5,300 nucleotides of DNA, taken from JAUWCW01 sp030609125 [NCBI: Candidatus Rokuibacteriota bacterium]. Lineage in GTDB: Bacteria; JAUVQV01. Under the pieces are notes generated by a model. The model saw only the letters and a list, made by a program, of their open reading frames with translations. It searched no databases and was not told the origin of the DNA. The stretch spans positions 1 through 5,300 of the forward strand of contig JAUWCW010000169.1 in the NCBI GenBank assembly GCA_030609125.1, read 5' to 3'. The position numbers were made by a program, and so were the translations under genes. This document shows, one piece after another, positions 1-3,125 of this stretch. Every line of letters starts with the position of its first letter. Positions within the stretch are counted from its first letter, which is position 1.

Positions 1-408
1 AACGAAATGGCTCGTCCAGGTGAACCGCTTAGTGCAGGGGTAGAAGAGAAAGAGGGCGACGAGAGGCGGCCAGAGAAGACGGCAGACGGGATGGAGGTGA
101 GCGACGGAGAGCAGAAGCACGGCCAGGGAGAGCAGGGCGAAGGCCCAGGCCTCGCCGCGCTTGAGGAGTCCCGACGGGAGGGCCCTTGAGGATGTCCTCG
201 GGTTGAGGGCGTCCAGGCGCTCGTCCAGAATCCTGTTCAGGGTCATCGCCAGGGAACGGGCGCCCACCATGGCGGCCGTGATCCAGAGGATCTCGGTCAG
301 GCCGGGTCGGCCCGCGCGGGCGAGAAAGACCGCCGTCAGGGCAAAGGGGAGAGCGAAGACGCTGTGCTCGAACTTGATCATCTCCAGAAAGGTGCGGAGC
401 TTATTCAA
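1..408 (-). CDS. ubiA: UbiA-family prenyltransferase, N-terminal part (cut by window edge)
   Basis: Integral-membrane enzyme that would attach a polyprenyl chain to an aromatic ring acid, the lipid-forming step of ubiquinone or menaquinone synthesis. The 136 visible codons are open to the edge, a little under half of the usual roughly 290-residue length. Start TTG at 408 is chosen because AAGGAG lies 7 bases before it (416-421) and the resulting N-terminus (NKLRTFLEMIKFEHSVFALP) is typical of the family. The first Asp-rich prenyl-diphosphate/Mg2+ motif is present as N58-xxx-D62-xxx-D66, followed by NPRT. Hydrophobic segments lie at about 17-33, 38-56 and 88-125, then the family-like YPCTKRFTW stretch near 126-133. 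The gene overlaps the end of ubiD by 8 bases, so translation is probably coupled. The UbiD partner suggests the futalosine-type menaquinone enzyme (MqnP) or 4-hydroxybenzoate polyprenyltransferase; the fragment cannot decide. The second Asp motif lies outside the window. Confidence 0.9.
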   Translation of the reverse strand, partial: MNKLRTFLEMIKFEHSVFALPFALTAVFLARAGRPGLTEILWITAAMVGARSLAMTLNRILDERLDALNPRTSSRALPSGLLKRGEAWAFALLSLAVLLLSVAHLHPVCRLLWPPLVALFLFYPCTKRFTWTSHFV

Positions 409-1855
409 GGCCGTACTCCTTCCAGCGGGCGTCGACGAGGCGACGGACGTCGTCGCTCATGGCTATGTCCTTCGGCCATTCGCGGGGATGGTTCTCCTCG
501 GGGAGCTTCCGGGTCGCGTCGATCCCCATCTTGCTGCCGAAGTCCGCTGTCGGCGAGGAGTGGTCGAGAACATCGAGAGGACCCTCGCCGAGGAGGACGT
601 CCCGGCGGGGGTCGACGTTGTTGAAGGCGCGCCAGGTCACCTCCGAGTAATCGTGTACGTTCACGTCGTGGTCGACGACGACGATCATCTTGGAGAACAT
701 CATCTGCCCTGTCCCCCAGATCGCGTTCATGACCTTCTGGGCGTGGCCGCGGTACTCCTTCCTGATGGAGACAATGACACAGTTGTGGAAGACTCCTTCC
801 AGGGGAAGGTCCATGTCGATGATCTCCGGCAGCAGGAGCCTGACGAGGGGAAGGAAGAGTCTCTCCGTGGCTTTGCCCATGAAGCAGTCTTCCATGGGCG
901 GGCGTCCCACGATGGTGGAGGGATAGAGAGGGTTGCGGCGCCTGGTTACCGCGGTGAGATGGAAGACCGGATAGTCGTCGGCCGGCGAGTAGTAACCCGT
1001 GTGGTCGCCGAAAGGCCCTTCACGCCGTCTTTCCTCGGGAGAGACATAGCCCTCAAGGACGATCTCCGCCTCGGCCGGCACCAGCAGGTCGACGGTACGG
1101 CACCGCACGACGTCAACCGCCCGGTCGCGGAGAAAGCCGGCGAAGATCAGCTCGTCGAGGCCCGGCGGGAGGGGCGCCGTGGCGGCGTAGATGGTGGCCG
1201 GGTCCGCGCCGAGAGCGACGGCCACCTGCAGGGGCTTGCCCCGCCGGCAGGATTCGCGGTAGTGACGGGCCCCGTCGTGGTGACGGTGCCAGTGCATGCC
1301 CGTCGTCCGGCCGTCGAAGACCTGGAGGCGGTACATCCCGACGTTCTGCTTGCCCGAGTCCGGGTCTTTCGTAATGACCAGGGGCAGGGTGATGAACCGG
1401 CCGCCGTCCTCGGGCCAGCATTTCATGACGGGAAGGTTGCCGATGTCGAAGCCGCTTTCCTGGACGATCTCCTGGCAGGGAGCGCTCCTGACAGTGCGGG
1501 GAAAGTAGCGGGCGCTCCTGGCAAGGTCCAGGAGGCGCCCGAGCTTGCCTGCCCAGCCCGCGGGGAGGTCCGTGGAGGCGAGGCGGGCGATACGCCGGGC
1601 GTGCTCCTCGAGGTCCTCCACCCCGAGGGCCCAGGCCATCCGCTCCGGTGTGCCCATGATGTTGGTGACAAGAGGGAACGGCGATTCCTTCACGCTCTCG
1701 AAGAGCAGAGCGGGCCCGCCGGCCTTGACGACGCGGTCCGTTATCTCCGTGATCTCGAGGTCCGCGCTGACCGGGGCGGTGATCCGCAGCAGCTGGTTTC
1801 TACTCTCGAGAAAGGAGACGAACTCTCCCAGGCTGCGGTACGAGGATATCTTCAT
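401..1855 (-). CDS. ubiD: UbiD-family prenylated-FMN decarboxylase, probably for menaquinone (or ubiquinone) synthesis
   Basis: Reversible (de)carboxylase using prenylated FMN and a divalent metal, expected to decarboxylate a prenylated aromatic acid in the cytoplasm next to UbiA. The 484 residues are normal full length. Spacing-based comparison with fungal Fdc1 (from memory) places the metal/cofactor ligands at N171 (QNVGMYR), a His of the 188-193 cluster (HWHRHH) and E235 (DELIFAG). The catalytic trio would be R176, E279 and D284 (EGPFGDHTGYY). Asp in the last place is seen in UbiD-type enzymes where Fdc1 has Glu. The C-terminal part carries VVVDHDVNVHDYSEV, NNVDPRRDV and SKMGIDATRK, which fit the menaquinone/ubiquinone branch rather than phenolic-acid decarboxylases. 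Start ATG at 1855 shares ATGA with the tetR stop, with AAAGG 7 bases upstream. A prenylated-FMN synthase (UbiX) is needed for activity and is not in view. Family is firm; the exact substrate is inference. Confidence 0.94.
   Translation of the reverse strand: MKISSYRSLGEFVSFLESRNQLLRITAPVSADLEITEITDRVVKAGGPALLFESVKESPFPLVTNIMGTPERMAWALGVEDLEEHARRIARLASTDLPAGWAGKLGRLLDLARSARYFPRTVRSAPCQEIVQESGFDIGNLPVMKCWPEDGGRFITLPLVITKDPDSGKQNVGMYRLQVFDGRTTGMHWHRHHDGARHYRESCRRGKPLQVAVALGADPATIYAATAPLPPGLDELIFAGFLRDRAVDVVRCRTVDLLVPAEAEIVLEGYVSPEERRREGPFGDHTGYYSPADDYPVFHLTAVTRRRNPLYPSTIVGRPPMEDCFMGKATERLFLPLVRLLLPEIIDMDLPLEGVFHNCVIVSIRKEYRGHAQKVMNAIWGTGQMMFSKMIVVVDHDVNVHDYSEVTWRAFNNVDPRRDVLLGEGPLDVLDHSSPTADFGSKMGIDATRKLPEENHPREWPKDIAMSDDVRRLVDARWKEYGLE
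416..421 (-). promoter_or_regulatory. Ribosome binding site deciding the ubiA TTG start
   Basis: AAGGAG on the minus strand stands 7 bases before TTG 408 and inside the last codons of ubiD. It supports the TTG over the next in-frame ATG at residue 10, which would remove the conserved family N-terminus. Confidence 0.75.
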
Positions 1856-2508
1856 GGGCGTGCCTTTCGCGGCTTTTCCGGCGCGGTGAGGCCGGTCTTG
1901 AGGATGATCCTGATGGTCTTTGTGGCCTTGAGCATGGAGAAACGGAAGCGGCGGCGAACCGGAGTCGGAGCGTTTTCCTTCATCATCCAGGCGAAGAGCA
2001 CGCTCTGGGCGATCCCGTAGATGACCATCCGGGCCACGCGGGTGTCAAGATCCGGGTGGTACTTGCCGGTCTGCTTCCCCTCGATGAGTATCGATTCAAT
2101 GAGGTCCAGGAAGTCGGCGAGGCGGAGAGCGACGCGGCTGTTGAAGAAGACGCTGCTGGGGTTGGTCTCCATGAGGAAAACCTGGGAGAGGGGCTTGCTG
2201 GTCATGAATTGCTTCATGGCCTCGGCGAAAATGGCCTTGAGCTTGTCGTTGGGGTCCGGGAGGCCCGATGTTTTTTTCCTCACCCGATCGGTGAAGCTCT
2301 GCCACCTTTCCTCGAAGAGGGAGAGAAAGATATCTTCACGGGAGGGGAAGTAGTTGTAGAGCGTCCCCTCGGCGACACCGGCTTCGCGGGCGATCTCGGA
2401 GGTCCTGGCGTCGTGGTAGCCGCGGCGGGCGAAGACCCTCTGGGCCGCCGCGAGGATGGCGTCCCGCTTGTGACCGTTGCGGACAGTGGGGCTCGTGGTG
2501 TCTTTCAT
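1852..2508 (-). CDS. TetR/AcrR-family transcriptional repressor (FadR/YsiA-like)
   Basis: DNA-binding repressor of 218 residues from ATG 2508, a normal TetR length. The N-terminal HTH domain spans about 15-62 (KRDAILAAAQRVFARRGY, then TSEIAREAGVAEGTLYNYF, whose GTLYNYF is the recognition helix). The C-terminal helical half (about 65-205) is the ligand and dimer region. The AGVAEGTLYNYF-REDIF style resembles fatty-acid regulators such as Bacillus FadR (YsiA); ligand and targets are inference. Earlier in-frame starts exist at 2526 and 2589, but the -10 box of a strong promoter sits at 2525-2530, so transcripts starting near 2518 would lack both. From 2508 the leader would be only about 10 bases with no clear Shine-Dalgarno, so 2526 cannot be fully excluded. 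No in-frame ATG, GTG or TTG lies between 2508 and the HTH. It is the first gene of tetR-ubiD-ubiA, ending in a 4-base ATGA overlap with ubiD. A seven-A run encodes part of the linker at K78-K79. Confidence 0.93.
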   Translation of the reverse strand: MKDTTSPTVRNGHKRDAILAAAQRVFARRGYHDARTSEIAREAGVAEGTLYNYFPSREDIFLSLFEERWQSFTDRVRKKTSGLPDPNDKLKAIFAEAMKQFMTSKPLSQVFLMETNPSSVFFNSRVALRLADFLDLIESILIEGKQTGKYHPDLDTRVARMVIYGIAQSVLFAWMMKENAPTPVRRRFRFSMLKATKTIRIILKTGLTAPEKPRKARP

Positions 2509-2526
2509 GAGTGAGTGCTCACTCAT
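2507..2526. promoter_or_regulatory. 20-bp palindromic operator, probable TetR autoregulatory site
   Basis: ATGAGTGAG and CTCACTCAT are perfect 9-base inverted arms around a TG centre. The inner 18 bases have the form TGAnTGA-n4-TCAnTCA, the same architecture I recall for the Bacillus FadR (YsiA) box. The site overlaps the edge of the -10 box, the predicted transcription start and the tetR ATG, so a bound dimer would block RNA polymerase. That it is bound by the adjacent TetR protein is inference from position and symmetry. It could also act on the divergent lipoprotein gene, but it lies about 120 bases from that start codon. Confidence 0.8.
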
Positions 2527-2553
2527 TATCGTTTCACGGGGAAGTCTTGTCAA
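2525..2553 (-). promoter_or_regulatory. Sigma-70-type promoter for tetR-ubiD-ubiA
   Basis: On the minus strand TTGACA (2548-2553, perfect -35) is followed by a 17-base spacer and GATAAT (2525-2530, five of six matches to TATAAT). Transcription would start near 2518, inside the palindrome. It is the only strong promoter seen in the window and lies directly ahead of the three-gene unit. Confidence 0.78.
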
Positions 2554-2645: not shown

Positions 2646-3125
2646 ATGGTGTTTAGACGAAATGCGCTGCAGGGATGGCTCGGTGCGCTCGGCCTGGCCG
2701 CCCTTCTGCTGATCCCCGCCGGATGCGACAACAGCGACAGCAGCGGGAACGTAACTGGGCCCATGGCGAATCTGGTGGTAATTTTCAGTCCCAATCCAGT
2801 CATGCACTCCGGCTACGGAGAGTGGCACTACGAGGTGGCAGTGAGGGAGACGAGCGGCGTGGGCGTTCACATCTACGGGTTTATCAGAAAGTCGCACAGC
2901 GCCGCCGGCGAGTCTTACAGTAACGACGTCAATGAGGAGATTGCTTTCATCGATGATTTCGACGGTTGCGGCGGCGAGGGCAATTACATCCCCGGCGGCG
3001 GGATAAGGTGCGGCTTCCATCGAATTTCTGATGGGCGAAACAGCGGCTTCGAGGTCTGGACGTTCTACGGCGTGGATGACTTTGGCAACGAGGTGACTGG
3101 CGAGGGGCGTGTCGATTTGCTTTAA
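2646..3125 (+). CDS. Small predicted lipoprotein of unknown function
   Basis: 159 residues from ATG 2646, chosen because a strong Shine-Dalgarno AAGGAGG (2634-2640) lies 5 bases before it and because it opens a proper export signal: basic MVFRRN, hydrophobic core to about residue 23, then IPAGC with the lipidation cysteine at C27. Pro at -3 is an imperfect lipobox. Asp at +2 would, by the E. coli Lol rule, favour inner-membrane retention; other lineages may differ. The mature part begins with a short polar linker (28-39). It then looks like a single beta-rich domain: NLVVIFSPNPV, an EWHYEVAVRET strand pair, GVGVHIYGF, and a final VWTFYGVDDFGNEV hairpin, suggestive of an Ig-like sandwich. C108 and C122 could pair. 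I do not recognise the family and assign no function. The gene seems less G+C-biased than its neighbours (codons such as ATA, AGA, TTT, AAT), which may mean lineage-specific or acquired DNA. It is divergent from tetR and convergent with the transporter gene. Confidence 0.85.
   Translation: MVFRRNALQGWLGALGLAALLLIPAGCDNSDSSGNVTGPMANLVVIFSPNPVMHSGYGEWHYEVAVRETSGVGVHIYGFIRKSHSAAGESYSNDVNEEIAFIDDFDGCGGEGNYIPGGGIRCGFHRISDGRNSGFEVWTFYGVDDFGNEVTGEGRVDLL

What the first reader, a model, noticed from the sequence alone, without database searches (positions are those of the whole stretch)
2507..2553. Strong promoter with a FadR-box-like palindrome over its start point controls a quinone gene unit
A TTGACA-17-GATAAT promoter and a near-perfect 20-bp palindrome of form TGAnTGA-n4-TCAnTCA overlap immediately before the tetR start. 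The layout implies autorepression. The box shape matches that of acyl-CoA-responsive FadR (YsiA) regulators as I recall it, and the protein's HTH resembles that group. If so, the inducer may be an acyl-CoA or a related CoA thioester.
Basis: partly seen in the sequence, partly recalled or inferred. Interest (0 to 1): 0.6.

Follow-up and report, generated by a model that had tools for sequence, protein, structure and literature searches.

The report
FadR-like repressor's own operator-promoter
A bacterial gene switch seems to sit on its own promoter ahead of menaquinone (vitamin K2) genes; its DNA site is of the type used by fatty-acid regulators, but its sensing half has changed, so what it senses remains open.

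Summary
In detail: TTGACA-17-GATAAT (11/12) runs into a 20-bp palindrome with perfect 9-nt arms that ends on the tetR ATG. The regulator heads overlapping tetR-mqnL(ubiD)-mqnP(ubiA), genes of the futalosine menaquinone route. The box is real: 20 of 36 distant homologous regulators carry TGAnTGA-n4-TCAnTCA exactly within 260 nt upstream (25 with one mismatch allowed), against 3 copies in the rest of that DNA and none upstream for seven control patterns. Autorepression is well supported, though untested.

The acyl-CoA inference is weaker. The protein scores 134 bits against FadR's cut-off of 200; seven beta-oxidation-linked homologues score 184-214, four unlinked ones 110-157. It has Asn for FadR's switch residue Arg109. 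Its box is the only one in its genome. The identical 18-bp core also precedes two other TetR genes beside ABC-efflux genes. None of 109 ubiD loci has the box; two Chloroflexi place an unrelated TetR, with another palindrome, in the same position. Best reading: a FadR-derived, single-operon autorepressor of menaquinone genes, effector unknown.

The parts
2525..2553 (-). sigma-70-type promoter: -35 TTGACA 2553-2548, 17-nt spacer, -10 GATAAT 2530-2525
2507..2526 (.). 20-bp palindromic operator ATGAGTGAG-TG-CTCACTCAT; core TGAGTGA-n4-TCACTCA at 2508-2525; overlaps the last two bases of the -10 and the first two bases of the tetR ATG
   Evidence: boxes before homologues:
1852..2508 (-). tetR: FadR/YsiA-like TetR regulator, 218 aa (TetR_N + TetR_C_4)
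401..1855 (-). mqnL-type ubiD: menaquinone biosynthesis decarboxylase, 484 aa, overlaps the tetR stop by 4 nt (ATGA); the only match to this protein in the genome
   Evidence: (TIGR03701 640.6 bits, cut-off 495.9)
1..408 (-). mqnP-type ubiA prenyltransferase, N-terminal 136 aa, TTG start, cut by the contig end; overlaps ubiD by 8 nt

Best explanation
A TetR-family homodimer of FadR (YsiA) descent binds the palindrome at 2507-2526. The site spans the end of the -10, the transcription start and the start codon, so binding blocks RNA polymerase and represses tetR together with mqnL and mqnP behind it (autorepression of one operon with overlapping genes). A ligand in the C-terminal domain should release it. 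The DNA-reading half has kept a FadR-type code; the sensing half has diverged (Arg109 to Asn, long branch), so the inducer is more likely not the long-chain acyl-CoA of classical FadR but another ligand, for example an intermediate of the quinone pathway. Shown: box, promoter, overlap, gene order, family, recurrence of the box before homologues, single site in the genome. Inferred: binding, repression, start point. Unknown: ligand.
For: Promoter and palindrome overlap. 20 of 36 homologues have an exact box within 260 nt upstream, 25 of 36 with at most one mismatch; 3 copies in 282,022 other positions; 0 upstream for each of seven control patterns. L145, the second-best homologue, has a 20-mer differing from the window's at one base. 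8 of the 25 boxed homologues have a promoter match of 9/12 or better, and in 6 of these 8 the predicted start lies in the box. One strict box and one TetR_C_4 protein in the genome, hence a local regulator. Overlapping genes tetR-ubiD-ubiA. Divergence of the sensing half.
Against: No binding or expression data exist. No orthologous operon was found, so conservation rests on homologues with other neighbours. 11 of 36 homologues show no box at one mismatch or fewer in 260 nt. 17 of the 25 boxed homologues, among them L144 and L145, show no promoter match of 9/12 by the box. No Shine-Dalgarno is seen before ATG 2508, so the start codon is not certain. The operon is cut by the contig end and the genome is about 92% complete, so further boxes could be missing. 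Descent from FadR is by similarity; the tree place is weak.
Confidence: 0.72

Rival explanations
1. Bona fide FadR function: long-chain acyl-CoA (or a related CoA thioester) releases the repressor, so menaquinone genes rise when fatty acids are oxidised and electrons must be passed to quinone.
For: Best solved-structure matches are FadR chains; TetR_C_4 61 bits, cut-off 21; both halves are most like FadR-type proteins among 45 rows compared; 20 of 36 homologues have ETF, FadB, thiolase, acyl-CoA dehydrogenase or the iron-sulfur oxidoreductase in the fetched stretch; the genome has two acyl-CoA dehydrogenase matches.
Against: 134 bits against a cut-off of 200; seven beta-oxidation-linked homologues scored 184-214 (5 of 7 over the cut-off), four unlinked ones 110-157. 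Asn at position 109; all 20 linked homologues have Arg, the 5 without Arg are not linked (Fisher p 0.012, relatedness not corrected). But 11 homologues with Arg109 are not linked either, so Arg109 is not a sign of linkage by itself. No box in the fetched acyl-CoA dehydrogenase stretches (L181, L182) and one strict box in the genome.
Confidence: 0.25
2. The regulator is an autorepressor with an aromatic, quinone-like or efflux-type ligand (such as dihydroxynaphthoate), its DNA site being shared with TetR proteins of efflux operons.
For: Exact core TGAGTGAGTGCTCACTCA before the TetR genes of L198 and L199, beside ABC, ABC-2 and (L199) HlyD genes; Asn109; the weak tree neighbours L146/L147 (85/51) have no beta-oxidation neighbours and L146 lies beside an MMPL transporter.
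Against: The window's HTH half is closer to FadR types (L145 61.5%) than to L198 (43.8%), and its ligand half has no hit to L198 and a weak one to L199. Its recognition stretch differs from L198's at 2 and L199's at 3 of 9 places, from L144/L145's at 2 and B. subtilis FadR's at 3, so it favours neither.
Confidence: 0.32
3. The palindrome serves another regulator, or is an RNA hairpin/terminator of the plus strand, and tetR is not autoregulated.
For: A terminator-like call on the plus strand at 2507-2526; no binding data.
Against: The box lies before 20 of 36 homologous tetR genes exactly; no plus-strand gene was assigned to end there; the tail is not a T run; the predicted start falls inside the palindrome.
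Confidence: 0.06

Closest known systems
FadR (YsiA) of Bacillus subtilis / B. halodurans (PDB 3whb, 1vi0; 5gp9, whose naming as B. halodurans FadR is recalled)
   Same: Same two domains; best solved-structure matches. Operator shape TGAnTGA-n4-TCAnTCA: the B. subtilis consensus TGAATGAnTAnTCATTCA is recalled, but the shape is shown here before FadR-type homologues.
   Different: Arg109 is Asn; below the FadR cut-off; heads menaquinone genes; single site in the genome; G at the fourth place of the half-site, where 14 of 20 exact homologue boxes have A.
   Same: Highest HTH identity (60-62%); L145's box differs at one base of 20.
   Different: Pass the FadR cut-off, keep Arg109, lead beta-oxidation genes.
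TetR genes beside ABC-2 efflux genes (L198, L199)
   Same: Identical 18-bp core; L198 also has TTGACA-17-TAAGAT running into the box.
   Different: C-terminal domain is TetR_C_24 (L199 also weakly TetR_C_4, 26.2 bits); FadR scores 83 and 87; neighbours are ABC, ABC-2 and, in L199, HlyD.
Chloroflexi tetR-mqnL-mqnP loci L101 and L105
   Same: TetR directly ahead of ubiD and ubiA, promoter running into a palindrome.
   Different: Separate TetR clade and operator ATAGACCGACnnGTCGGTCTAT.

Membership tests
FadR, Bacillus type (NF053878) | TetR_N helix-turn-helix and YsiA-like C-terminal domain (TetR_C_4) | tested here: met
   64.5 and 61 bits, cut-offs 24 and 21
FadR, Bacillus type (NF053878) | score over the curated equivalog cut-off of 200 bits | tested here: not met
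   134.2. Of 11 homologues scored (of 36), 5 pass (L144, L145, L150, L156, L163) and 6 do not, two of these beta-oxidation-linked (L172 184, L168 193.5)
FadR, Bacillus type (NF053878) | Arg109, key to the conformational change (PMC13176608, passages seen) | tested here: not met
   Asn; Arg in 31 of 36 homologues
FadR, Bacillus type (NF053878) | TGAnTGA-n4-TCAnTCA operator | tested here: met
   but other TetR genes meet it too
FadR, Bacillus type (NF053878) | regulon of beta-oxidation genes marked by boxes | tested here: not met
   one strict box in the genome, none in the acyl-CoA dehydrogenase stretches; genome 92% complete
FadR, Bacillus type (NF053878) | release from DNA by long-chain acyl-CoA | not testable with these tools
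   needs gel shift
Autorepressed local TetR regulator | palindromic operator over the promoter/start of its own gene | tested here: met
Autorepressed local TetR regulator | protein binds the operator and represses | not testable with these tools
   needs gel shift and reporter
Futalosine menaquinone genes | ubiD over the mqnL equivalog cut-off, and other mqn genes in the genome | tested here: met
   TIGR03701 640.6, cut-off 495.9; MqnC 472, cut-off 428.1; one PF02621 MqnA/D-family match over its Pfam cut-off, which had no NCBIfam match at 1e-15
Futalosine menaquinone genes | ubiA over an MqnP cut-off | tested here: inconclusive
   best model MqnP, 153 bits of a cut-off of 430, but the gene is cut at 136 aa by the contig end

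The most novel reading that the evidence does not exclude
A dedicated regulator of menaquinone supply that arose from the FadR acyl-CoA sensor: it kept FadR's DNA code, lost the acyl-CoA switch arginine, left the beta-oxidation regulon and now senses a quinone-pathway or other ligand. A separate TetR in Chloroflexi took the same post with another operator, so TetR control of mqnL-mqnP would have arisen at least twice.
Probability: 0.35. Interest if true: 0.5.

Novelty: new variant of a known kind. Interest (0 to 1): 0.36.

Why it matters
I found no described TetR regulator of the futalosine menaquinone pathway in the held library: searches (54 papers, 15 titles listed; 0 papers; FadR with menaquinone, 3 papers) show none by title; subscription papers are mostly not held. 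If a FadR-derived repressor sets quinone supply, one can ask whether cells tie electron-carrier synthesis to fatty-acid supply or to feedback from the pathway. It is also a caution: box shape and HTH speak for the DNA site of a TetR protein, not for its ligand.

Tried and rejected
Tried without result: scan of named genomes for close relatives of the TetR (22 stretches matched, none confirmed); the two genomes held for the phylum (only the window's own at E <= 1e-20); the FadR-DNA structure paper 10.1093/nar/gkx009 (not held), so DNA- and CoA-contact residues were not compared one by one; literature search for the recalled FadR consensus (0 papers), for TGAATGA with FadR (9 papers, no relevant title), and for the window's half-site (2 papers each, no relevant title).

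Rejected: terminator/hairpin reading; a wider regulon in the genome (8 relaxed sites, 7 control sites); control of the plus-strand lipoprotein-like ORF at 2646 (no plus-strand promoter found). The whole-window palindrome test alone is not significant (41 of 200 shuffles); I rely on position and homologues. Position 109 rests on ungapped alignments. Homologues are related by descent, so its p value is only a guide, and neighbours were seen only in the fetched stretches, some cut by contig ends. In one search at most seven candidates per genome were scored. The tree place of the window protein is weak (85/51, long branch). No structure prediction was run.

Full report
The window is a complete contig (C290, 5300 nt) of a 2.32-Mb, 92%-complete genome with one other held genome in its phylum. 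On the minus strand it carries tetR (2508-1852), ubiD (1855-401) and the start of ubiA (408-1, cut by the contig end); the genes overlap by 4 and 8 nt. UbiD passes the menaquinone-decarboxylase equivalog (TIGR03701) and is the only match to that protein in the genome. The genome also holds MqnC (over its cut-off) and one MqnA/D-family protein (PF02621; no NCBIfam match at 1e-15), so I take this for the futalosine menaquinone route.

TTGACA-17-GATAAT (11/12) is the only promoter-like site in the window and runs into ATGAGTGAGCACTCACTCAT at 2526-2507, whose 9-nt arms are perfect. The palindrome shares its last two bases with the tetR ATG. A start point about 7 nt after the -10 would lie inside it, leaving a leader of roughly 10 nt without a Shine-Dalgarno sequence (inference). 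By itself a palindrome of this quality turns up in 41 of 200 shuffles of the window, but in 3 of 2000 shuffles of the 161 nt around the start.

Homologues give the real test. Of 386 genomes searched, with at most seven candidates scored per genome, 36 foreign TetR matches had E <= 1e-22; all 36 were fetched. Within 260 nt upstream of the match, 20 of 36 have TGAnTGA-n4-TCAnTCA exactly and 25 of 36 with at most one mismatch. The other 282,022 positions of the same DNA hold 3 exact copies, and seven control patterns gave none upstream. Those three copies stand at the 5' ends of the acyl-CoA dehydrogenase genes of L144 and L145 and of the MMPL gene behind L146's tetR. L145's box is ATGAGTGAGTGCTCATTCAT, 19 of 20 letters like the window's. 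Eight of the 25 boxed homologues have a promoter match of at least 9/12, and in six of these the predicted start lies in the box. Against: 11 of 36 show no box, and 17 of 25 boxes have no such promoter match.

A count over 17 genomes: 15 chosen because their TetR homologue has an exact box hold 1 to 8 exact boxes each; the window's genome holds one; the other genome of its order none; the reversed control gave none in any. Relaxed to two mismatches the own genome gives 8 sites against 7 for the control. Its acyl-CoA dehydrogenase stretches on C5 and C16 have no box. The regulator is also the only TetR_C_4 protein there. So this is a single-operon regulator, as far as the assembly shows.

Is it a FadR? 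The domains say FadR-like, and among the 45 rows compared both halves are closest to FadR-type proteins. But it scores 134 against the FadR cut-off of 200. I scored 11 of the 36 homologues: seven with beta-oxidation neighbours gave 184-214 (five over the cut-off), four without gave 110-157. The window falls among the latter, although two linked ones also miss the cut-off. Position 109, Arg in B. subtilis and B. halodurans FadR and in 31 of 36 homologues, is Asn in the window. PMC13176608 (passages seen) calls Arg109 a key residue of FadR's conformational change. All 20 homologues with ETF, FadB, thiolase, acyl-CoA dehydrogenase or the iron-sulfur oxidoreductase in the fetched stretch have Arg109; the 5 without Arg109 have none; 11 with Arg109 have none either. 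Of the five without Arg109, two still have an exact box (L154, L173) and one a box with one mismatch (L175), so keeping the box does not imply keeping the acyl-CoA switch.

The box is not FadR property either. The exact core TGAGTGAGTGCTCACTCA occurs in G025 and G310 before TetR genes of another type: TetR_C_24, with L199 also weakly TetR_C_4, FadR scores 83 and 87. Their neighbours are an ABC ATPase, an ABC-2 permease and, in L199, HlyD. L198 repeats the layout, TTGACA-17-TAAGAT into the box, with the box encoding MSEHSL in frame, as the window's upstream in-frame ATG would. Boxes of the general shape precede further TetR-like ORFs (L200, L201). The window's presumed recognition stretch AEGTLYNYF differs at 2 places from L198, 3 from L199, 2 from L144/L145 and L146/L147, and 3 from B. 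subtilis FadR, so it does not decide; over the whole HTH half the FadR types are closer (L145 61.5%, L198 43.8%).

Are there orthologous operons? Two have a TetR gene directly ahead on the same strand, three a divergent one, none the box; 106 of 109 have at least 700 nt upstream. The two, L101 and L105 (both Chloroflexi), have a TetR of a separate clade, their own palindrome ATAGACCGACnnGTCGGTCTAT, promoters running into it and ubiA behind ubiD. TetR control of mqnL-mqnP thus seems to have arisen more than once.

Conclusion: an autorepressor of FadR descent over a FadR-type box, heading menaquinone genes (about 0.72). The inducer is open; classical acyl-CoA about 0.25. This is a rewired known kind, of moderate interest.

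Noticed in passing
L101:4292-5011 and L105:4284-4992: Chloroflexi tetR-mqnL-mqnP operons with palindrome ATAGACCGACnnGTCGGTCTAT over the promoter region; a separate TetR clade in the same post.
   Followed up: partly
L198:3165-3880 and L199:3407-4067: The window's exact 18-bp core stands before TetR genes beside ABC-2 efflux genes; in L198 the box could encode the first codons MSEHSL.
   Followed up: partly
window 2506-2526: If the promoter is used as predicted, tetR would have a leader of about 10 nt and no Shine-Dalgarno, so leaderless or near-leaderless translation is likely.
   Followed up: no
window 2646-3125 (+): Small divergent ORF of 159 aa with a lipoprotein-like signal (IPAGC, by eye) and no Pfam or NCBIfam match at 0.001.
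   Followed up: no
L101:7377-9820 and L105:7520-10509: ORFs that read like a TauT/NMT1-type substrate-binding protein, ABC ATPase and permease follow mqnP in both Chloroflexi loci (by eye from ORF lists; no family search).
   Followed up: no
L146:2109-4601: The weak tree neighbour L146 has a second exact box at the 5' end of an MMPL transporter gene, so such boxes are not confined to beta-oxidation genes.
   Followed up: no
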